Assembly: GCF_007752935.1 (NCBI RefSeq)
Contig: NZ_CP036319.1
Coordinates: 4,878,501-4,942,500, forward strand
Origin: Crateriforma conspicua
GTDB taxonomy: Bacteria; Planctomycetota; Planctomycetia; Pirellulales; Pirellulaceae
Reading direction: 5' to 3'
Length of the DNA stretch: 64,000 nt
A program made the translations under genes and the position numbers. Positions 52,527 to 64,000 of this stretch are shown one piece after another (within the stretch, counting starts at the first letter, position 1; every line of letters starts with the position of its first letter). The notes under the pieces were generated by a model. The model did no database searches, was not told where the DNA came from, and saw only the letters and a program-made list of their open reading frames with translations.

Positions 52527-52561
52527 TTTCGCATCACGAGTCGGAAAAGCTCCGACACTGC

Positions 52562-52621
52562 GTCGATTTGCCGGGCGTCGATTTGCCGGGCGTCGATTTG
52601 CCGGGCGTCGATTTGCCGGGC
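52562..52621. repeat. Four perfect tandem 15-bp repeats upstream of the exporter promoter
   Basis: GTCGATTTGCCGGGC occurs four times head to tail with no mismatch, then a 6-bp partial copy. The array covers about -62 to -121 relative to the predicted start site of the exporter operon, where activator sites of sigma-54 promoters usually lie. It can also be read as coding on either strand because 15 is a multiple of three, but no credible gene surrounds it. Confidence 0.9.
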
Positions 52622-52735
52622 GTCGATGCCAGGCCCCGCGAATGCCGCCGCTATGCCGGACCGACCCGTACAGCGAATTGCACTTCGGTTCGCATCACCC
52701 CCAGAACGCGCGGGCGTCCGAACATGACACAACAT

Positions 52736-55367: not shown

Positions 55368-56378
55368 TTAGCGCCGGCGTTCGTCGACCCTAATCGCGTT
55401 CAAGGCGGTGATATTCGCGGAATCGTGCAACTGCTGCATTTCGGAATCCGACAGCGCCCGGTCAAACACGGCTAACCCTCCGAAGTGACCGATGGTTGCC
55501 TCGCGGGTAAACGAACCAACAGCGAATCGAGCACCGACGGTGAAATCAGAACCACCACCGGGTTTGGTTTGGGCATGCTGCGCCGGATCGTAGCGAAAAA
55601 TGCCACGCCCGTGATAATACGGATTCATTCCACGATCTCGCCCATCCGGTCCCTCCCGAGTGAAATAGCGATCTTGGCGTTTGTCCTTGACTGAATCCAA
55701 GTCGCGCGGCTCCATGATCCCGTTCACGTAGGCGCGGATGTACTTTGCGTCATAAGTGAACCCCAACGTGCACCACTGTTCCTCCGGGACTTCGCTGGCC
55801 GTCGCCGCATAGTCGGCACACCACGGAAACGCGCTGCCGTCGGCCCGCCGTGTCACGCCGCCTTCGCTAGAGATGTGGGGCACCAGTTGCCGCGGGCCAC
55901 CATACGTGGGCATGTTCATCAACAGTGCGTACTGCCGCGTCCCTGAATCATCGTGGCGACCTTTGCCTTCGCTCCACATGCCGGCGATCGTACGACTCTG
56001 ACGCAGGTCCACGATGCGGACCACGGCGAACATGCTGACCTGTGCACGCGGCCCACTGATGTTCAACCGTCCCGTGTCGGCGTAGGGAATCTTGAAGTAG
56101 TGCTTTCCATCCAACCTGGCTGAATAGCCCGAGTAGGGGCCGATCGCCGCGCGTGGGATTTCTCCGCCGACTTCCATCAGCGGCAAAGATTCGTTTGTGC
56201 CGGAGGACTGACGCAATTCTCCCGCGTCTTCGCCGAACATCCAAAACCCGACCAGCCCCGGTGTTTGCAAGACGACCTCCGGATCGCCCAGGGGTGTCGC
56301 ATCAGCGGCCATAACAGGGGAACACCCCCAGCACAAAATCAGCGTTGTCACGATCGTGACGCAAGTCTTTGGCGACAT
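55368..56378 (-). CDS. Exported LamG/concanavalin-like domain protein
   Basis: 336 aa, signal peptide [21 protein letters not shown] single LamG-type jelly-roll follows: [46 protein letters not shown] and the closing [24 protein letters not shown]. Such proteins bind glycans or serve as surface proteins in planctomycetes. No enzymatic motif. Convergent with the His-rich gene, and not obviously in an operon. Confidence 0.82.
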
Positions 56379-56513
56379 GAATTAGAACTCTTATCAATAC
56401 GCAAGCAGGCGGTTCGCGACCATTGTAGGCCTTCCTAAGACGACAAGGTTCGTCGGCTTGGGGCGCGGCGTTGGCGAACAACTGCAACGAAGTTCATCGG
56501 TCATTACAGCCGG

Positions 56514-57272
56514 CTACATCGGCGACCCGGCGGCCGCTTTGGTGGCCAAGAAACCGTGCATGCCGTCCAGCAAAGGGACATCGGCATAGCAATCCACCTG
56601 GACCACGTCGAAACCAGCCTGTTGCAAATCATCCACGACTTCCACCGCCGGATACAGCCGCAATCGATGTGTTTCGGTGTCTCGCCGATAGAACGCGCCT
56701 TCGCGGACGAAAGTCGTGATCTGGCGTGTTAGCAAATCCAATTCAAAAGCAGTTTCCACCAACACAGCCCAGTGGTCACCTTCGGCAAACGTCCGTGTCG
56801 GCTGACGCGGTGCCCTTGATGGACCCGCCACATCCAACAGAAACAGCCCACCGGGTAAGAGCGAACGAAACAGACGGCGAAAGAACGCTTGCCGTGCCGA
56901 TCGGTCACAACGTGGATCAAACACGTAATTCAGCACCTCGCCGATGGTGACCACCGCAACCGCTGGCGGGACCACCAGGTCCACATAGGAACCGACCTGA
57001 AACGAAGCCTCAGGGACACGCTCTCTCGCAATACCAACGCTTGCACCTGAGACATCGCACCCCAGCACCTGGTAGCCCGCGTCCGCGAAAATGCGTGCCG
57101 CGATTCCACCCCCACAGCCGATATCGACAACCAGCCCGCACCGGACATCTCGTGCGCGTAAATGATCGACCACCGTGCGGGCCGCGGCGCCGGCAAACCG
57201 TCCAAATCCTACGTCGTGGATGTGGGCAAGGTCGGATCGGTAGGCGTCCAGCGTGGCATTCTCTTCGCTCAT
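56514..57272 (-). CDS. SAM-dependent methyltransferase (class I)
   Basis: 252 aa from the ATG at 57272, with AAGGACG upstream; an earlier start at 57317 is less likely. The SAM-binding motif I is VVDIGCGGGIAARIFADAGYQVLGCDVSG, with motif II/III in VVTIGEVLNY and LLPGGLFLLDVAGP. Rossmann-fold class I enzyme of unknown substrate. This is the last host-type gene before the attachment site at 57.57 kb. Confidence 0.88.
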   Translation of the reverse strand: MSEENATLDAYRSDLAHIHDVGFGRFAGAAARTVVDHLRARDVRCGLVVDIGCGGGIAARIFADAGYQVLGCDVSGASVGIARERVPEASFQVGSYVDLVVPPAVAVVTIGEVLNYVFDPRCDRSARQAFFRRLFRSLLPGGLFLLDVAGPSRAPRQPTRTFAEGDHWAVLVETAFELDLLTRQITTFVREGAFYRRDTETHRLRLYPAVEVVDDLQQAGFDVVQVDCYADVPLLDGMHGFLATKAAAGSPM

Positions 57273-57529
57273 GCCAAAAACGTCCTTGTGCGACGAGAAT
57301 CCCAAACCAGTAGTCACCCACAGTCATCGATCACGAGCCGACGGCAGGCCACGAAAATAACGCAAGCACGGTGTCGGCGGGCGTTTCGGGCACCGGCAAA
57401 GACCTGGCAAGATCCCGGGAACGGGCGCCATCACAAACGGCCAGGCGAAGCAGTCACCGTCTGAGGGCAAAAGACGAGCAGAGGCAAGCAACTTCGGAGA
57501 TTGCTCGCAAATCACGAACGAAAGTCAAC

Positions 57530-57567
57530 AAAAAACGCCTTGTGACAACAACTCGACACAAGGCGTT
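57530..57567 (-). terminator. Rho-independent terminator of the tRNA-Val gene
   Basis: On the minus strand an 11-bp stem (AACGCCTTGTG with CACAAGGCGTT, 57557-57567 and 57534-57544) runs into a T run (57535-57530). It lies 2 bp beyond the 3' end of the tRNA remnant, so this flank is the original host downstream DNA. Confidence 0.88.
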
Positions 57568-57569
57568 GA

Positions 57570-57611
57570 TGGGCGATACAGAATTCGAATCTGTGACCTC
57601 TGCGGTGTGAA
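57570..57611 (-). tRNA. 3' half of tRNA-Val(CAC): attachment-site remnant
   Basis: Read on the minus strand: anticodon loop TTCACAC with anticodon CAC, stem half CGCAG, 5-base variable loop AGGTC, T stem ACAGA / TCTGT around loop TTCGAAT, acceptor half ATCGCCC and discriminator A; CCA is not encoded. Geometry is exact for a tRNA from the anticodon loop on. The 5' half (D arm and 5' acceptor) is absent; the upstream DNA does not pair with it. This is what an integrase leaves at the far end of an element inserted into a tRNA gene. Confidence 0.85.
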
Positions 57612-57885
57612 TCGCGATAAAACACGCAAGCGCCGCCCCGGTTTTTGCGGGAAAAACCCCGTTTCCGTTGCTATTTGCTAGCATATCGCGTGCAACGCTC
57701 GTTGCAACTAGTGGCGTTGATTGTGATATAGAACGGCCGGATTTCGCTCAAATCGGCCTATTCTTGATATGGATATCAAGAATGATTCGCCGCTTCGGCC
57801 AATCAGTCGCCCGCAAGATGGGACCGGCCACCGCTCGCAGACCGCCGGTGGACCGCCGGGAATTGCCGCATCGATGGCGGCAGGG

Positions 57886-58285
57886 GTGGAAACGACCGGT
57901 GGGTCCGGTGGTCGTGGCGACAATATTTCGGGTGATCAAATTGATCACCCGAAAACAGGTGGAAGTGACCGGTGGGTCCGGTGGTCGTGGCGACTGGTCC
58001 GACTCCACCATGGTGGAGTCGACGGACGGCAGTGGAAACGACCGCCGGGATCGGTGGTCGTGGTGACAAAAGCGTCAAATGACGTTTTATCGATTGATGA
58101 TGCAGTGGAAGTGACCGCCGGGACCGGTGGTCGTGGTGACAAGAGAAACCCCGAACCATCAAATGATGGATCGGGAGTGGAAGTGACCGCCGGGACCGGT
58201 GGTCGTGGTGACTCCGACTCCGGAATTCCGGAGTCGAAGCTTGGCAACAAGTGGAAGCGACCGCCGGGATCGATGGTCGCGGGAC
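57886..58285. repeat. Array A: six 36-bp repeats separated by different palindromes
   Basis: Repeats at 57886-57921, 57959-57994, 58032-58067, 58105-58140, 58177-58212 and a degenerate one at 58251-58285. Each begins GTGGAA and contains GACCGCCGGGACCGGTGGTC or a variant (GACCGGTG...; GGAT for GGAC). That core folds on itself (GACCGCCG with CGGTGGTC, 4-base loop GGAC/GGAT). The 36-38-bp segments between them share no sequence, but each holds its own palindrome: 57928-57952 (12+12), 58001-58020 (perfect 20 bp), 58073-58084, 58150-58175, 58216-58235 (perfect 20 bp). The 73-bp period is not a multiple of three, so this is not a repeated peptide. Confidence 0.9.
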
Positions 58286-58296
58286 TGGCCCTTGTT

Positions 58297-58625
58297 ACTT
58301 TCAGGCAAATTTTCCTGAATGTTGTCTTTCAGGTCTGTTCTCTGGCCCTGCCGTTTCTTCGCCTGGTCGCGGGCCCGGCCTTTGTTCTGTTCAGGCAAAT
58401 TTTCCTGAACAGATTCGGCGGGCTTTCGAACCTGCCGTTTCTTCGCCTGGTCGCGGGCTTTGCCTGTTTCGCAAGGTGGTAAATTTTCCACCTTGCTCTG
58501 ATGTTGATTCGACCCCTGCCGTTTCTTCGCCTGGTCGCGGGCCTGGCCTTTGTCCGGTTCAGGCAAGTTTGCCTGAAGCGCTTTTTTCGAGTGATCGCCA
58601 CCACCATCAGACTGCCGTTTCGCTT
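58297..58625. repeat. Array B: 84-bp units, 27-bp conserved block plus variable hairpin
   Basis: A 27-bp block starting CTGCCGTTTCTTCGCC and ending GGTCGCGGGC is identical at 58348-58374, 58432-58458 and 58516-58542, with a truncated start at 58612. Between blocks are hairpins whose arms change in step: TTCAGG/CCTGAA (58300-58319), CTGTTCAGG/CCTGAACAG (58387-58412), GCAAGGTGG/CCACCTTGC (58471-58496), TTCAGGCAA/TTGCCTGAA (58558-58577). The first three share an AAATTTT loop. Spacings of 84, 84 and 96 bp keep a minus frame open (peptide repeat ARDQAKKRQ ... ENLPE), but that frame has only a TTG start. Confidence 0.88.
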
Positions 58626-58797
58626 ACTACCCCCCTCAGGCCGCCTGTGCCGTCCCCTAACGCACTTTCCCGCTTTCGTCGCTCCGATGTCGCGTTAGGT
58701 CGTCCAGTCGCGGGAGGGTTGAGCGTGTGCGGTCGATCCTTGCGAAGACGACGCAAAGCAGCGTCGCGGGACGTGCCGGCGGGTGCCGGCGGTGACT

Positions 58798-59062
58798 GTG
58801 CCTCTTGTATATTATCCAAGAGGCACTTTTCATTGGTGTATTGATTCTTCACGTCGGCGGGCGTGAAGTCTTTGTGGGTCAGGTGGCGGACAGCTCCTTC
58901 TGTCCATACTGGCTTAGATTCCGAGTCCCCAATTGGGGATTCAAATGTTGGCAGCAGTGGCCGGGGACAGGAAATCAAGTCCTCAAATTGAGGACTTGTG
59001 GAAACGACCGCCGGGGTCGATGGTCGTGGTGACAGCACAAGCAGAGTGGACAAATTGACCAC
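58798..59062. repeat. Further palindromes and a solitary seventh copy of the 36-bp repeat
   Basis: Palindromes: GTGCCTCTTG / CAAGAGGCAC (58798-58826), a 14-bp perfect core TCCCCAATTGGGGA (58926-58939), CAAGTCCTCAA / TTGAGGACTTG (58976-58998), and GTGG-A-CAAATTG-A-CCAC (59046-59062). A 36-bp repeat of the array A type lies between the last two at 58998-59033, 0.7 kb from the array. A minus frame (58607-59062) spans this region but is built from repeats at its start. Confidence 0.85.
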
Positions 59063-59331
59063 CCCAAAATCTCATTCTGCTGGCCGAGATAAAGCAGACG
59101 GAACACGGGCGGTCGTCACCGATGCGAACCGACTTTGAGGCCACCCCCGGCTGTGTCCGTGCGTACCTTCCCCCTAATCCCCCACGGGATTGAAAGCGCC
59201 GGAATTTTTATGGCGAGCATCGCGATTCTATTGACCGCACTTTTCATCTGTCCGGCGGAAGGACCCAAAGGCGGGTAGGGGGGTGGTGCATCGCATCGGT
59301 TGGTCCATTGTCGCAGATTCAATGAAGACAC

Positions 59332-59373
59332 AAAAAAAAGCCGGACCACTGCCAAAGCTAACAGCGGTCCGGC
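59332..59373 (-). terminator. Strong Rho-independent terminator ending the element's leftward operon
   Basis: Minus strand: GCCGGACCGCTG pairs with CAGTGGTCCGGC (one G-T pair), followed by eight T residues (59339-59332). It lies 63 bp past the stop of the last operon gene and separates the operon from the palindrome region. Confidence 0.92.
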
Positions 59374-59435
59374 CAAGCCCAGTCCCGTGGAAAGGTTGCG
59401 AAACACGGGGCGGGAGACAATCAGCGGGTGTGGGG

Positions 59436-60191
59436 TCAGTCGACGTACACGTCCAGACATTCCGCCTCGGCGGCATCAATCGCATCGTTGTACGCGTCCA
59501 GGTTCTCCCCGTGGATTTCTTCGAGTTTTGGAATGCGTGCCACCTGCTCGTCGATGTAGGCCTGCCATGCCGAACGGTCGACCGTAGATCGCTGGCCAAA
59601 CCCACGACGCTCAACAAACTTCTTGCCGGTGGTGTGTTCGATTGTGGTGATGAAGTCGATGCACTTCTGCCCGTCATCGATGGCCAAGTTCTCGCACGCT
59701 TCGATGCGGTCCAACTCGGTCTCCGCCCGCAATGCCGCCTCCCGATACTTTCGGGTCGCGGCTCGCTTGCGCTGGTTGAACTCAGCGACGCGCCACTTGG
59801 GTGCCAGCGATCGCAGGTTAGTAACTGCCGCGTCCATCTCCTCGGCTCGCTTGGCCGCGATGCGGTGGTCTTGCTCGATCTTGGCCAACTCGGATTGAAG
59901 GTCGGCGATCTGCTTTTGCAATTCTGGCGCGCGTTTTTCTCGCACTTTGAACAGGCGAGAAACTTCCGCATCCTGTTTGTCGCGATCTTTGCGGGTGCCG
60001 GCGATCTTGCGTAGCTGGACGATGCGACCGAATCGGCGCAACTCTTTGTCCAGTTCCCTTTCGCTGCACCCGAGTGCATTGCAGCATTCGACGCGTTGTT
60101 CAAACGTCAATTCTCCGCCGGACGATGCGACCATTTTTAACAACTCCTCGGCGGCTTCCAGCTTGGATTTGGTTTCGGTTTTGGTGGTCAT
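59436..60191 (-). CDS. Coiled-coil protein of unknown function (element-encoded)
   Basis: 251 aa. The N-terminal 60 residues look like a small helical domain (LTFEQRVECCNALGCSERELDKELRRFGRI). Residues about 75-175 are a long coiled coil (KRAPELQKQIADLQSELAKIEQDHRIAAKRAEEMDAAVTNL; NQRKRAATRKYREAALRAETELDRIEA). The C-terminus is acidic (AYNDAIDAAEAECLDVYVD). No known family. The ATGA overlap with the previous gene makes it the final gene of the leftward operon. Confidence 0.75.
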   Translation of the reverse strand: MTTKTETKSKLEAAEELLKMVASSGGELTFEQRVECCNALGCSERELDKELRRFGRIVQLRKIAGTRKDRDKQDAEVSRLFKVREKRAPELQKQIADLQSELAKIEQDHRIAAKRAEEMDAAVTNLRSLAPKWRVAEFNQRKRAATRKYREAALRAETELDRIEACENLAIDDGQKCIDFITTIEHTTGKKFVERRGFGQRSTVDRSAWQAYIDEQVARIPKLEEIHGENLDAYNDAIDAAEAECLDVYVD

Positions 60192-60529
60192 TGGTTGGCC
60201 TCATGCTTGGCTGTCAGTCGGATTAGTTCGTCGCAGTGTTCGCGAAACGTGTGCGGTGGGACATTCAATTCCAGACCGCTGTTGAGAAGTTGCCAGTCGC
60301 TTCGGTTCAAAAACTGCATCGCACTGGCCAGTCGGACCGTTGTGGCCCTGGACGCTCGGCCACGGTGGACCCAGTAGCCTGACCACAAGTCCGCCGGCGG
60401 TCCGTCGGTGTACTGGTTCGCCTTGTTGATAACCTCGACCAGGCAAAACACCGCGACGGCCTCAGCGTGGCTCCCGGCGGCTGTGACAAACTCGCCACCG
60501 GTCGGCAAGACGATGTAGAACTTATCCAT
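60188..60529 (-). CDS. Hypothetical protein (element-encoded)
   Basis: 113 aa. Begins MDKFYIVLPTGGEFVTAAGSHAEAVAVFCL, with an alpha/beta feel, then GYWVHRGRASRATTVRLASAMQFLNRSDW. No recognised family. Overlaps the upstream coiled-coil gene's end by 8 bp and the next gene by ATGA, so it is translated as part of a tight operon. Confidence 0.65.
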   Translation of the reverse strand: MDKFYIVLPTGGEFVTAAGSHAEAVAVFCLVEVINKANQYTDGPPADLWSGYWVHRGRASRATTVRLASAMQFLNRSDWQLLNSGLELNVPPHTFREHCDELIRLTAKHEANQ

Positions 60530-61750: not shown

Positions 61751-61901
61751 AGTCAGTCTCAATGGGAACCATTAAGAGAGACTGACTCTCTTATGGTCCC
61801 TTATGGGAATGGCGACATCTGGGTGTCGCCTGGGCAGGTATCAAAATGTCGCCTACGTGGCGACATAGCTATGTCGCCTAGGATTTGCTCAAAATGTCGC
61901 C
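61751..61901. repeat. Candidate replication origin or operator: six ATGTCGCC copies and competing hairpins
   Basis: ATGTCGCC or a one-base variant occurs six times within 91 bp: 61846-61853, 61871-61878, 61894-61901 and 61823-61830 (GTGTCGCC) on plus, 61811-61818 and 61859-61866 inverted. Pairs form GGCGACAT/ATGTCGCC dyads. Next to it, AGTCAGTCTC (61751-61760) can pair with GAGACTGACT (61778-61787), while CCATTAAGAGAG (61769-61780) can instead pair with CTCTCTTATGG (61786-61796). The site is just below the replication genes, typical of iterons at an origin or of operators for the winged-helix protein. Confidence 0.55.
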
Positions 61902-62251
61902 TAGGCGTCCGGCGGTGATCGGGGCAGTGAGTCGAGTTTTTCGCGCGACATTGGCAACACTCGGTAGCTTGCCGAACCTTGGCGAAACCCTCCCGTGTTC
62001 ACTACTACCAGCAGCCCCCGAGCGACCAAGCTTGCGACCGACCGCTCAACGGTTTTGCGATCAATCCCACACCGACCCGCGATGGCTCGCTGGGATACCG
62101 TCGCGATCCCTTCGCGGGTGTCGCGGTACAACGCCAGCCACACCAACAACTCGGACCGTCGCAGTTCGCTTGCCGTGAAGTCCACAAACGCATTCAAGAC
62201 GCGGAAGCGGTCGGCGGTTTGACGCTTCGGCTTTGTCTTTGGGCGGGTCAT
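61901..62251 (-). CDS. Winged-helix DNA-binding protein (element-encoded)
   Basis: 116 aa, starting with ATGA overlap to the helicase gene. A basic N-terminus is followed by a clear winged helix: SELLVWLALYRDTREGIATVSQRAIAGRCGIDRKTVERSVASLVARGLLVVVN. Similar small winged helices act as replication initiators or repressors on plasmids and satellites. The repeat cluster 61811-61901 touches its 3' end and is a likely binding site. Confidence 0.8.
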   Translation of the reverse strand: MTRPKTKPKRQTADRFRVLNAFVDFTASELRRSELLVWLALYRDTREGIATVSQRAIAGRCGIDRKTVERSVASLVARGLLVVVNTGGFRQGSASYRVLPMSREKLDSLPRSPPDA

Positions 62252-63165
62252 TCCTCACCCCACAATCCCGCAATCGCAGCGCGAAGTTGGCGGTGTTCCT
62301 CGGTCATCGGTGGTTCGGTCGGTTCGAACGATTGGACCGAGCGGTCGAACGTCAGGTCGCAATCCGTCGGCTGACCGTAGCGGCTTTTCAGTTGCCTCAA
62401 CGTCACGTCGATAACCGCGTCGTCGGCGTCCTGTTCGGCGTCCTTCGCGGGAACCAGCAGGTAGGCGTCATCGGCCCCGTATTCCAGTTCTGACGACTCC
62501 CGAAAGGATGCCAGTGACAAGCCGTCGCCGGCGTAGCTGGTGCGGCCTTTGGCATCCTTCGAACGTCCGACCGCCGACAACGCCAGAACGCAACAACCCG
62601 CATCGGCGAACCGCCGTATCGAATCCATCGTCGCATCGACCGAACCGCGTTTGTCGTCATGCTTGCCGACCGGCCGGATTCGTTGGATGTAGTCCAAAAC
62701 AACCAACTCGGCTTCGATGTCGTCCGCAGCCGCCGCGACGTTCTCAAGTGTCATCGGTGCCCGCACAAACACCAGCCTGTCGGCGATGTCGTCGATGACA
62801 TCAAAAGCCGCGTCTAGTTTGTCGCGTTGCCGTTCACCTAGTTGGCGGCTTTGGATGTAGTCCAGTCCCACCCCCGATAAACGGCTCAGTTGCCGTTCTA
62901 ACAGCCGTTCCGGCGGCATCTCGACATTGCAGACGCACGCACGCAACGATTCGTCAGCGGTCATCGCAGAGACGACGCACTGCATGGCAAATGCCGTCTT
63001 GCCCATGCCGGGTGAACCGCCCAACAAAGAGACGGTCCCCGGACCAAGCCGGACGTGTTCCAATCCCGGCCCGATGTCATATCGGCGCGGCGGTTCGCCG
63101 TGCAAAACATCGTCTTGCCAGTCATCGAACAACCGGTCGCACCGGATGAAGTTCGCGGCGGTCAT
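62248..63165 (-). CDS. DnaB/RepA-like replicative helicase
   Basis: 305 aa. RecA-type hexameric helicase core: Walker A GGSPGMGKTAFAMQ near 50, acidic catalytic NVEMPPERLLERQ, Walker B in AELVVLDYIQRIRP, a Q-loop region VLALSAVGRS, and QLKSRYGQPTDCDLTFD at the C-terminus. The N-terminal domain that lets DnaB bind primase is missing, as in RepA-like plasmid helicases. Its ATG overlaps the primase stop (ATGA), so helicase and primase are made together. Confidence 0.88.
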   Translation of the reverse strand: MTAANFIRCDRLFDDWQDDVLHGEPPRRYDIGPGLEHVRLGPGTVSLLGGSPGMGKTAFAMQCVVSAMTADESLRACVCNVEMPPERLLERQLSRLSGVGLDYIQSRQLGERQRDKLDAAFDVIDDIADRLVFVRAPMTLENVAAAADDIEAELVVLDYIQRIRPVGKHDDKRGSVDATMDSIRRFADAGCCVLALSAVGRSKDAKGRTSYAGDGLSLASFRESSELEYGADDAYLLVPAKDAEQDADDAVIDVTLRQLKSRYGQPTDCDLTFDRSVQSFEPTEPPMTEEHRQLRAAIAGLWGEE

Positions 63166-64000
63166 TCCGTAACCCCTTTCGACAATCCATTGTCAATCGC
63201 TCGGCGGACATCAGCCGGCGGCAACCCCGAGTCCAAAGCCGATTCAGTCAGCAACGCATGCGCAAGTCGCGGCGGACAACCAAGCTCGGCCAAGTTTGCT
63301 GCCGCCGAGTACAACAGCCGGTGTCGGTCGCCTTCGTCCGCACCGTCGCGGATAAACTCCAATGTCGCCAAGTTCAGCTCGGTCCGGTCGGTGTCGCGAC
63401 TTCGGACCGCTTCGGTTTTTCGGTTCGTCTGTTCGCAAGCCGATTGCCAGTCCGCGACCGCTCGTTCGTCGGCCGCTGGTGTTTCTGGCAAGTCGAACGC
63501 CAGCGGCTCGGCCGAACGCTCCACAATCGCCGCCGGCCGAACCTGCATCAGCTCATCGACCGTCAGGAACCGCTTGTGACGTCCCGTCTTGCCGTGGCGG
63601 CTGTTCGGTGCTCGTAATGGCTGGACGATGTGGTAGATAGCCGTGTCGAGCCTTACAGCGGCCTTCGTGGCGATGTCCTCGGCTACCTGCCGAGCCACCC
63701 GGCCGAACACGTCCGACGGTTTGGCGGCGAACAGTGATGTCGGTAGGCCAACGTGAAAGCCTTTTGACCCGCTGAAGAACACCAGCAGCTCGGATTCATC
63801 GACTTGGTATCGCTCCAACACCCAAGCGACCAACCGCCGAGCCGAAGCGGTTGCCCGGTCGATGTTGCCGTCGTCGTCGATGTCGGCCCACAAGTACCGC
63901 GACCAATGCGTCCCGGTGAACCCGCGAACGTCCAACGTTCCGTCCGGTCGAACCACGCGCGACCGAATCGCATTGTCGTACTGGAAAGGTGATAAGAACC
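63162..64000 (-). CDS. Archaeo-eukaryotic-type primase (AEP), 5' end outside the window
   Basis: At least 279 codons, open to the window edge; residues before the GTG at 63956 (FLSPFQYDNAIRSR) read as genuine protein, so the start lies beyond 64 kb. AEP motifs: WADIDDDGN (metal-binding DxD), FFSGSKGFHVGLP (sxH motif), and APNSRHGKTGRHKR (third motif). The C-terminal part (EFIRDGADEGDRHRLLYSAAANLAELG ... PPADVRRAIDNGL) resembles the PriCT-type domain joined to helicases. It primes DNA synthesis on the element, with the adjacent helicase. Confidence 0.87.
   Translation of the reverse strand, partial: FLSPFQYDNAIRSRVVRPDGTLDVRGFTGTHWSRYLWADIDDDGNIDRATASARRLVAWVLERYQVDESELLVFFSGSKGFHVGLPTSLFAAKPSDVFGRVARQVAEDIATKAAVRLDTAIYHIVQPLRAPNSRHGKTGRHKRFLTVDELMQVRPAAIVERSAEPLAFDLPETPAADERAVADWQSACEQTNRKTEAVRSRDTDRTELNLATLEFIRDGADEGDRHRLLYSAAANLAELGCPPRLAHALLTESALDSGLPPADVRRAIDNGLSKGVTE

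What the first reader, a model, noticed from the sequence alone, without database searches (positions are those of the whole stretch)
57886..58285. CRISPR-like array in which every 'spacer' is a palindrome
Six 36-bp repeats alternate with 36-38-bp segments, giving a 73-bp period that an array finder would call CRISPR. But each interval contains its own inverted repeat (up to a perfect 20 bp), all with different sequence. The repeat itself also folds into a hairpin. So the unit is conserved hairpin + variable palindrome. Selection seems to keep self-complementarity, not sequence. I know no described element of this form; it may make a chain of RNA hairpins, a cruciform array, or a bank of dimer-binding sites.
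Basis: seen in the sequence. Interest (0 to 1): 0.85.

Follow-up and report, generated by a model that had tools for sequence, protein, structure and literature searches.

The report
Bank of ParB-type DNA binding sites
A mobile element in a planctomycete carries a CRISPR-looking row of different DNA palindromes; several are traceable to inside ParB-like DNA-clamp genes, where such palindromes track the residues that would read them, so the row looks like a collected set of landing sites for many different proteins.

Summary
Six 36-bp repeats enclose five intervals (57922-58250); four of five are significantly palindromic. The region runs on to about 59.0 kb with a second, 84-bp-period array. 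It belongs to a 9.7-kb integrative element in tRNA-Val; three sibling arrays lie in the same genome.

It is not CRISPR: no Cas1 was found, and the traceable intervals come from one place, the linker of ParB-like genes: 41 bp at 98% in a sibling element's gene, 92 bp at 98% and 64 bp at 88% in other genomes.

Those genes explain the palindromes. In 173 non-redundant ParB-like genes the linker holds a palindrome in 80%, against 10% after synonymous shuffling. Its bases follow recognition-helix residues almost one to one, e.g. residue 132 Q to G 29/29, R to C 26/27, A to A 23/24. Such genes appear to carry their protein's own binding site.

I read the array as a bank of ParB-type sites captured from several genes, used as decoy or docking sites. 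The code is strongly supported, capture is shown for some units, purpose is inferred. Similar clusters sit beside terminase genes in two viral contigs.

The parts
57569..57611 (-). left attachment site: 43-bp copy of the 3' part of tRNA-Val; the right copy lies at the intact tRNA-Val, position 67305-67347 in window numbering (outside the window)
   Evidence: 43-bp exact direct repeat; tRNA-Val by ARAGORN
57886..58286 (+). array 1: six 36-bp repeats (starts 57886, 57959, 58032, 58105, 58177, 58251) and five intervals
57922..57958 (.). interval 1, palindrome TTTCGGGTGATCAAATTGATCACCCGAAA (odd centre); its position 3-6 word occurs in 6 genes of the set, 5 of them with Pro129/Lys132/Arg133
57995..58031 (.). 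interval 2, GACTCC-ACCATGGT-GGAGTC class; no source gene found, word not seen in the gene set
58068..58108 (+). interval 3 and 4 bases more: 41 bp 98% identical to the linker of the ParB-like gene at 7.04 Mb, near a sibling array
58141..58176 (.). interval 4, palindrome CCCGAACCATCAAATGATGGATCGGG; word not seen in the gene set
58213..58250 (.). interval 5, GACTCC-GGAATTCC-GGAGTC class; word not seen in the gene set
58256..58577 (-). array 2: four units (spacing 90/84/84) whose repeat reads KARDQAKKRQ on the minus strand (ParB-like linker flanks), with palindromes at 58300, 58386, 58471, 58558
58385..58448 (-). array 2 stretch 88% identical to the ParB-like gene of another planctomycete (L486)
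58445..58536 (-). array 2 stretch 98% identical (92 bp) to a ParB-like gene of another genus (L046/L467)
58798..58826 (.). palindrome GTGCCTC-TTGTATATTATCCAA-GAGGCAC; a sibling array has the same core with other, again complementary, arms
58926..58939 (.). palindrome TCCCCAATTGGGGA (GACTCC-like outer arms)
58976..58998 (.). palindrome CAAGTCCTCAAATTGAGGACTTG (odd centre); its word occurs in 3 genes, all with Ala129/Glu132/Arg133
58998..59033 (+). seventh, separate copy of the 36-bp repeat
61901..62251 (-). replication-initiation-like HTH protein of the same element
   Evidence: Pfam HTH_36, PHROG replication initiation
62248..63165 (-). DnaB-like helicase of the same element
63162..63956 (-). 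primase of the same element (the gene may start further right, at L009:8131, outside the window)

Best explanation
The array is a bank of recognition palindromes for proteins of the ParB-CTPase family. Step 1 (strongly supported by sequence, not by experiment): ParB-like proteins of phages and related elements carry, in the flexible linker of their own gene between the ParB N-domain and the helix-turn-helix, a palindrome whose bases are read by that helix. Step 2 (shown for some units): linker pieces with their palindromes were copied out of several different ParB-like genes into non-coding arrays at the end of small integrative elements, where coding sense was lost but dyad symmetry was kept. 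Step 3 (inferred): the array docks ParB-like clamps made by other phages or elements in the same cell, either drawing them away from their own sites (decoy, incompatibility) or letting the element profit from whatever the clamp does at its site (segregation, regulation, DNA methylation or packaging). I cannot choose between these two; I give them about equal weight.
For: Units trace to different ParB-like genes: 58068-58108 to a gene near a sibling array (41 bp, 98%), 58445-58536 to another genus (92 bp, 98%), 58385-58448 to a further genome (64 bp, 88%). The L003 array matches L466 (151 bp, 74%; ParB-like by HMM) and L468 (110 bp, 77%; ParB-like by eye only). Linker palindrome score 7 or more in 139 of 173 non-redundant genes (80%) against 10% of synonymous-codon shuffles (10 per gene) and 5.6% of 2205 other windows of the same genes; score 11 or more 30% against 0.2% and 0.2%. 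Covariation in 150 of those 173 genes: half-site position 3 with residue 133 (z 30), 4 and 5 with 129 (z 26, 29), 6 with 132 (z 35), 7 with 128 and 132 (z 18, 13); the best column outside linker and HTH sums to 0.60 bits against 2.33 for 132. Code: 132 Q to G 29/29, E to G 19/19, K to C 18/18, R to C 26/27, A to A 23/24; 129 R to GC 96/99; 133 R to G 40/42. Nearest-neighbour pairs give the same top columns, linker columns left out. By my reading these residues lie in the recognition helix of the model (helix 124-135; mean pLDDT 91), whose best PDB matches are Spo0J, ParB, Noc and KorB. Dyads persist while arms change: window 58386 GTTCAGG..CCTGAAC, parent L486 GTTCCGG..CCGGAAC. A 60-bp-period array with different palindromes lies beside terL in a viral contig (L514), and three different sites in and behind a decayed ParB-like fragment beside terL in another (L511).
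Against: No binding was measured. The GACTCC class (intervals 2 and 5 and further sites at 7.05 and 7.09 Mb) is not seen in the gene set and no source gene was found. Of 12 window palindromes 8 share a position 3-6 word with some gene, but 4 of these 8 only through a mismatch wildcard at one position (58300, 58386, 58471, 58798); of the 4 exact fits two have an odd centre unlike the genes used, and one (58069) is helped by its own parent gene in the set. Interval 3, the best-traced one, is a weak palindrome (p 0.12). The parent L486 breaks the rule at residue 132 by my reading by eye (Ala, but C in its site). The 36-bp repeat has no traced origin. Permutations do not remove relatedness. Such arrays were found in one genome plus two viral contigs; 240 other genomes of the family gave parent genes or weak matches. 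Nothing shows that the array is bound or useful.
Confidence: 0.63

Rival explanations
1. A true CRISPR array, or a cas-less mini-array on a mobile element, with spacers against competing elements; the palindromes are incidental.
For: Repeat and interval lengths are CRISPR-like; interval 3 matches a gene of another mobile element over 41 bp at 98%.
Against: No Cas1 in the genome (control found in 9 of 14 genomes). Repeats vary between copies. Traceable pieces come from the same short place in homologous genes, and in array 2 the repeat itself is ParB-like coding sequence. 11 of 14 intervals are palindromic.
Confidence: 0.05
2. A silent cassette bank: array units recombine into a live ParB-like gene to change its linker and site.
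For: Interval 3 equals the linker of the ParB-like gene about 4.4 kb from a sibling array; array 2 keeps flanking coding sequence that would allow recombination.
Against: The traced units do not reach the recognition helix, so an exchange would break the match between site and helix that most genes with a palindrome keep. The window element gave no match to this ParB-like protein; the one match in the genome is the 7.04-Mb gene.
Confidence: 0.07
3. Mobile palindromic elements (like Rickettsia palindromic elements or REP sequences) that insert into ParB-like linkers and into intergenic DNA alike, with no binding role.
For: Palindromes sit at one position of the gene and the commonest core in all reading frames; a Phycisphaerales genome has an intergenic palindrome cluster of a related look.
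Against: An inert insertion does not predict the one-to-one dependence on four helix residues that lie at least 16 nt downstream of the palindrome.
Confidence: 0.08
4. RNA hairpin chain: the array is transcribed and acts as structured RNA.
For: Every palindrome would also fold as RNA.
Against: Over 56000-60500 only two Rfam matches at E up to 1, both far below gathering score. In the parent genes symmetry runs through the centre in 110 of 139 and G-T mismatches are not in excess.
Confidence: 0.05
5. Debris: palindrome-prone copying errors piled up ParB-like gene fragments near an attachment site, without function.
For: Units are fragments; no use is shown; the last repeat of array 1 is degenerate.
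Against: Dyads are kept while arms diverge between sibling arrays and between array and parent (single examples, not counted); similar clusters occur in two viral contigs.
Confidence: 0.12

Closest known systems
ParB-parS and Noc-NBS (chromosomal partition and nucleoid occlusion)
   Same: Same protein fold, a palindromic site read by a helix-turn-helix, and specificity residues in and near the recognition helix as in PMC7383237 (passages read).
   Different: Here the site lies inside the protein's own gene in a large phage family, the sites differ from gene to gene, and the array joins sites of several proteins. A parS inside spo0J of Bacillus subtilis is recalled, not checked.
Orphan ParB-CTPase-fold fusion proteins of phages and archaea (PMC12704722, PNAS 2025)
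   Same: The proteins here appear to belong to this group: ParB N-domain, HTH and often a methyltransferase (MT-A70 in 40, Dam in 12, N6_N4_Mtase in 8 of the 120 scanned; overlap not checked).
   Different: In the main text of the paper the term palindrom* occurs 0 times (abstract, outline and seven passages read), and the passages seen describe no DNA sites for the orphan proteins.
CRISPR arrays, including virus-borne mini-arrays (the latter recalled)
   Same: Conserved repeats of about 36 bp, intervals of nearly constant length, one match to a mobile-element gene.
   Different: No Cas1, variable repeats, palindromic intervals, traceable ones from one homologous gene position.
KorB-operator and other repeated operator or iteron arrays (recalled)
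   Same: A cluster of dyad sites on an element with a replication module.
   Different: Those repeat one site for one protein; this collects different sites.

Membership tests
CRISPR array | cas genes in the genome (Cas1 as marker) | tested here: not met
   0 matches to PF01867 in own genome, control positive in 9 of 14; only Cas1 was searched
CRISPR array | near-identical direct repeats | tested here: not met
   Repeats vary at several positions within one array, the last one strongly
CRISPR array | unique spacers from scattered places of foreign DNA | tested here: not met
   Traceable pieces lie in the linker of homologous ParB-like genes; one interval recurs in another array. Most intervals have no traced source
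CRISPR array | processed crRNA | not testable with these tools
   no transcript data
ParB-type (parS-like) binding sites | palindrome at a fixed place in parent genes | tested here: met
   139 of 173 genes against 10% of shuffles
ParB-type (parS-like) binding sites | base preference set by the recognition helix | tested here: met
   covariation at residues 128, 129, 132, 133, for parent genes; correlation, not binding
ParB-type (parS-like) binding sites | array palindromes follow the same code | tested here: inconclusive
   8 of 12 window palindromes share a base word with some gene, 4 of the 8 only through a mismatch wildcard; the GACTCC class does not
ParB-type (parS-like) binding sites | binding and clamp loading | not testable with these tools
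   needs protein
ParABS partition system | ParA partner beside the ParB-like gene | not tested
   no ParA search was run
REP/RAYT or Rickettsia palindromic elements | one conserved palindrome family spread over the genome | tested here: inconclusive
   Exact hits of GACTCCN8GGAGTC-type with dyad cores lie only in the four array regions, but among one-mismatch hits at least one dyad core lies elsewhere (5967388); array palindromes differ from each other. Transposase partners were not searched

The most novel reading that the evidence does not exclude
Small integrative elements and some phages keep CRISPR-looking, protein-read archives: arrays of landing sites copied out of the ParB-like genes of many rival or partner elements, so that whichever ParB-like clamp (often a ParB-methyltransferase fusion) enters the cell, part of it is loaded on the archive owner's DNA. 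The clamp genes carry their own site so that the clamp marks or handles only the genome that encodes it; the archive defeats that self-recognition, either as a multi-target decoy or by letting the element pass as self.
Probability: 0.3. Interest if true: 0.95.

Novelty: categorically new. Interest (0 to 1): 0.87.

Why it matters
Two things follow. First, if the code holds, the DNA targets of a large group of orphan ParB-like proteins, including ParB-methyltransferase fusions, can be read from their own genes, with a simple residue-to-base table that can be tested at once; the 2025 survey of this fold speaks of diverse predicted activities and many orphans (PMC12704722, abstract, outline and seven passages read). 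Second, a heterotypic bank of such sites would be a way for mobile elements to engage many rivals at once by protein-DNA recognition instead of guide RNA. It also warns that array finders may list such banks as cas-less CRISPRs.

Tried and rejected
CRISPR: set aside after the Cas1 search and the tracing of pieces to one gene position. Rfam: two matches at E up to 1, both far below gathering score. Tracing by DNA search in phages and plasmids: no match. Tracing the GACTCC class by pattern in genome contigs and viral contigs: 43 stretches (35 and 8), of which only L463 (a record of the own element or a very near relative, judged by eye) and L456 (Phycisphaerales, intergenic cluster) have full dyads; no ORF of 60 aa or more over these matches hit the ParB-like HMM. 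Relatives of the 251-aa neighbour protein: none in genome contigs (a search for close relatives), one in viral contigs at 89%. Weak matches of array pieces in other genomes: 15 loci were inspected (L470-L477 without L478 and the like, L488, L489, L491, L496, L497, L500, L502) and held no array; L496 (39 bp, 90%) lies over an unrelated ORF; L492-L495, L498, L499 and L501 were not looked at one by one. Literature: seven searches; no listed title or abstract start describes palindromes inside ParB-like phage genes or heterotypic ParB-site arrays, within a library that lacks most subscription papers. Papers seen: PMC12704722 (abstract, outline, seven passages), PMC7383237 (twelve passages), PMC10432266 (nine passages, not used); all others as listings only. 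Rows dropped before counts: of 362 HMM alignments 343 ORFs with at least 120 columns were kept, including repeats of the same contig fetched by different queries; genes lacking columns 96, 120 or 135 and redundancy at 80% identity left 173; 23 of 173 without an even-centred palindrome of score 6 or more were left out of the covariation test; 120 of 173 were given to the Pfam count. Linker columns 108-113 also covary with the palindrome, trivially, because the palindrome encodes them. L503-L514 were found by a pattern that contains GCAAATTTGC twice, so their fit to the code is circular in part; of the 12, L511 and L514 (and less clearly L504) look by eye like clusters of different sites.

Full report
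What is there. The window is positions 4878501-4942500 of a 7.18-Mb single-contig genome. At 57886-58286 six copies of a 36-bp repeat alternate with five intervals of 36-38 bp. Four of the five intervals are palindromic beyond 300 dinucleotide-preserving shuffles each (p 0.0033, the floor of the test); the third is not significant (p 0.12). Palindromes of score 8 or more occur at 7.35 per kb over 57700-59060 and 0.16 per kb over 1-57000.

Where it lies. A 43-bp exact repeat joins 57569-57611 with the end of an intact tRNA-Val gene at 67305-67347 (window numbering), so the array is at one end of an integrated element of 9.7 kb. The element carries an integrase of the Phage_integrase family, a DUF669 protein, a primase, a DnaB-like helicase and a replication-initiation-like HTH protein. 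Three other arrays with the same 36-bp repeat lie at 3.77, 7.05 and 7.09 Mb: one beside a split copy of tRNA-Arg, one near a 544-aa protein that I take for a serine recombinase from recalled motifs, one 2 kb from tRNA-Leu; the integrases of these siblings were not scanned. In the four arrays 11 of 14 intervals are palindromic at p<0.02, one identical interval being counted twice.

Where the intervals come from. Interval 3 (58068-58108 with four bases more) is 98% identical over 41 bp to coding sequence of a 267-aa protein gene at 7.041 Mb, about 4.4 kb from the 7.05-Mb array. That protein resembles phage ParB-like proteins. Array 2 reads, on the minus strand, KARDQAKKRQ-linker-ENLPE. Its stretch 58445-58536 is 98% identical over 92 bp to a ParB-like gene of another genus, and 58385-58448 is 88% identical over 64 bp to a ParB-like gene of a further genome. 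The 3.77-Mb array matches L466 (74% over 151 bp, ParB-like by HMM) and L468 (77% over 110 bp, ParB-like by eye, not an HMM hit). The 84-bp period equals the 28 codons between the two DQA motifs of such a gene (read). So several different ParB-like genes contributed pieces, those traced always from the same place: the linker between the ParB N-domain and the helix-turn-helix. Most intervals of array 1 have no traced source.

Why these pieces are palindromes. I collected ParB-like genes from viral contigs, phages and related genomes and reduced 343 usable ORFs to 173 with less than 80% identity. In 139 of 173 (80%) the linker holds a palindrome of score 7 or more. After shuffling synonymous codons (10 times per gene) the figure is 10%, and in 2205 other windows of the same genes 5.6%; at score 11 the figures are 30%, 0.2% and 0.2%. 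The palindrome is mostly symmetric through its centre (110 of 139), arm mismatches are not G-T biased (10 G-T, 17 A-C), and the core GCAAATTTGC occurs in all three reading frames (55, 12, 2). This points to selection on DNA symmetry rather than on the peptide or on RNA pairing.

What reads them. In 150 of the 173 genes, those with an even-centred palindrome of score 6 or more, I compared half-site bases with every protein column. Position 3 goes with residue 133 (z 30), positions 4 and 5 with 129 (z 26 and 29), position 6 with 132 (z 35), position 7 with 128 and 132 (z 18 and 13); the best column outside the linker and HTH reaches 0.60 bits in sum against 2.33 for residue 132. These z values rest on 60 permutations each and do not remove relatedness. 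The table is nearly deterministic: residue 132 Q to G 29/29, E to G 19/19, K to C 18/18, R to C 26/27, A to A 23/24; residue 129 R to GC 96/99, D to CG 7/8, P to AT 5/5, while K and S are mixed; residue 133 R to G 40/42, most others to T; residue 128 R to C 31/34, E to G 28/36. Pairs of nearest relatives (121 pairs, linker columns left out) single out the same columns. The palindrome ends at least 16 nt before codon 128 (median 40), so the codons do not overlap; mere linkage would tie the palindrome to the whole helix, not to four residues one by one. A predicted structure (mean pLDDT 91, 30 sequences) puts these residues, by my reading, at the start of the recognition helix, with the linker at low confidence; its best matches in the PDB are Spo0J, ParB, Noc and KorB, with low whole-chain TM-scores of 0.3 to 0.5 (by sequence Noc and ParB). 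In Caulobacter ParB the recognition helix enters the parS major groove, and residues including R173 and N178 contact it (PMC7383237, passages); my mapping of columns 128 and 133 to these two residues is by eye and recall. I conclude that these genes most likely carry the binding site of the protein they encode.

What the proteins may do. Of 120 of the 173 proteins scanned, 40 match MT-A70, 12 Dam and 8 N6_N4 methyltransferase families (overlap not checked). ParB-CTPase-fold fusions of this kind are described in PMC12704722 (abstract, outline and seven passages read); the passages give no DNA sites for them. The protein of the 7.04-Mb element has no Pfam match.

Does the array follow the same code? 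Eight of 12 window palindromes share a position 3-6 word with some gene of the set, but four of the eight (58300, 58386, 58471, 58798) only through a mismatch wildcard at one position. Four fit exactly (57926, 58069, 58558, 58976); two of these have an odd centre, and 58069 is helped by its own parent gene in the set. The gene set uses 26 of 256 such words. Intervals 2 and 5 (GACTCC...GGAGTC), interval 4 and 58926 do not fit, and no source was found for the GACTCC class. In this genome the exact hits of that pattern with dyad cores lie only in the four array regions; with one mismatch at least one dyad core lies elsewhere. The 36-bp repeat is also untraced. Dyads persist while arms change: 58798 has GTGCCTC/GAGGCAC around the core that carries GAGGAAC/GTTCCTC at 3.77 Mb, and 58386 has AGG/CCT where its 88%-identical parent has CGG/CCG. 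One result against the rule: that parent has Ala at residue 132 by my alignment by eye, where the table predicts A, but its site has C.

Elsewhere. A scan of viral contigs for two GCAAATTTGC cores 45-75 bp apart gave 12 contigs. One (L514) has three direct repeats at an exact 60-bp period with three different palindromes, just upstream of a terminase large-subunit gene and with no ParB-like ORF found in the contig; another (L511) has three different sites in and behind a decayed ParB-like fragment, next to a terminase large-subunit gene. L504 is less clear. The rest do not look like such arrays by eye. The idea of a heterotypic site bank therefore does not rest on one genome alone, though the sample is small and was found by the core itself. 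In 240 other genomes of the family no second array was seen (best matches only).

How it most likely works. Shown: position, repeats, palindromes, tracing of some units, and the covariation code in parent genes. Inferred: that proteins bind the array, and why. Docking of foreign clamps could harm their owners (decoy, incompatibility) or help the array owner (segregation, regulation, methylation, packaging; the terminase neighbourhood in two phages hints at packaging but proves nothing). A cassette bank for switching specificity is less likely because the traced units lack the recognition helix. CRISPR is unlikely: no Cas1, unequal repeats, and traceable intervals from one gene position.

Verdict. 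The finding is real and more interesting than stated. A heterotypic bank of ParB-type sites matches no kind of system I know or found in seven literature searches in a library of open papers only.

Noticed in passing
L152 (ParB-like gene of another planctomycete): The linker palindrome spans 50 bp with 23-bp arms (CCCCCCAGCAGCAAGGTAGCGC...); L149 and L170 have 34-bp ones.
   Followed up: partly
L159 and L160: Tandem ParB-like linker/HTH pieces in one locus (in L160 each with a palindrome, in L159 shown for the second only); possible intermediates on the way from gene to array.
   Followed up: no
L056/L139 and L162: A sub-group that seems to lack a linker before the HTH carries a palindrome after it instead (ACCTTTTCCAAATGGAAAAGGT, AACTTGTCAAATTGACAAGTT).
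   Followed up: no
L456:125-561: Intergenic cluster of palindromes in a Phycisphaerales MAG (CAACTGAGGAAATTCCTCAGTTG, CAACTGCGGAAATTCCTCAGTTG, CGACTCCGACATGTCGGAGTCG), similar but not identical to each other.
   Followed up: partly
L505:9397-9552: Viral contig with several near-identical copies of GCTCGGAGCAAATTTGCTCCGAGC, a homotypic palindrome cluster.
   Followed up: no
L012:9210-10529: The 7.04-Mb region carries a Pfam Phage_capsid gene near the ParB-like gene and the array; it may be a capsid-bearing satellite or a prophage remnant.
   Followed up: no
L511:5369-6988 and L514:1779-3347: Both site clusters lie directly beside the terminase large-subunit gene.
   Followed up: partly
window about 52560-52640: Short tandem repeat (reads SICRASICRAS and GRRFAGRRFA in two overlapping frames).
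   Followed up: no
window 59436-60191: 251-aa protein kept next to the array in at least two of the elements (89% identical in L053, the viral-contig record of the 7.09-Mb copy by eye); a search for close relatives in GTDB contigs found none; a possible array-specific factor.
   Followed up: partly
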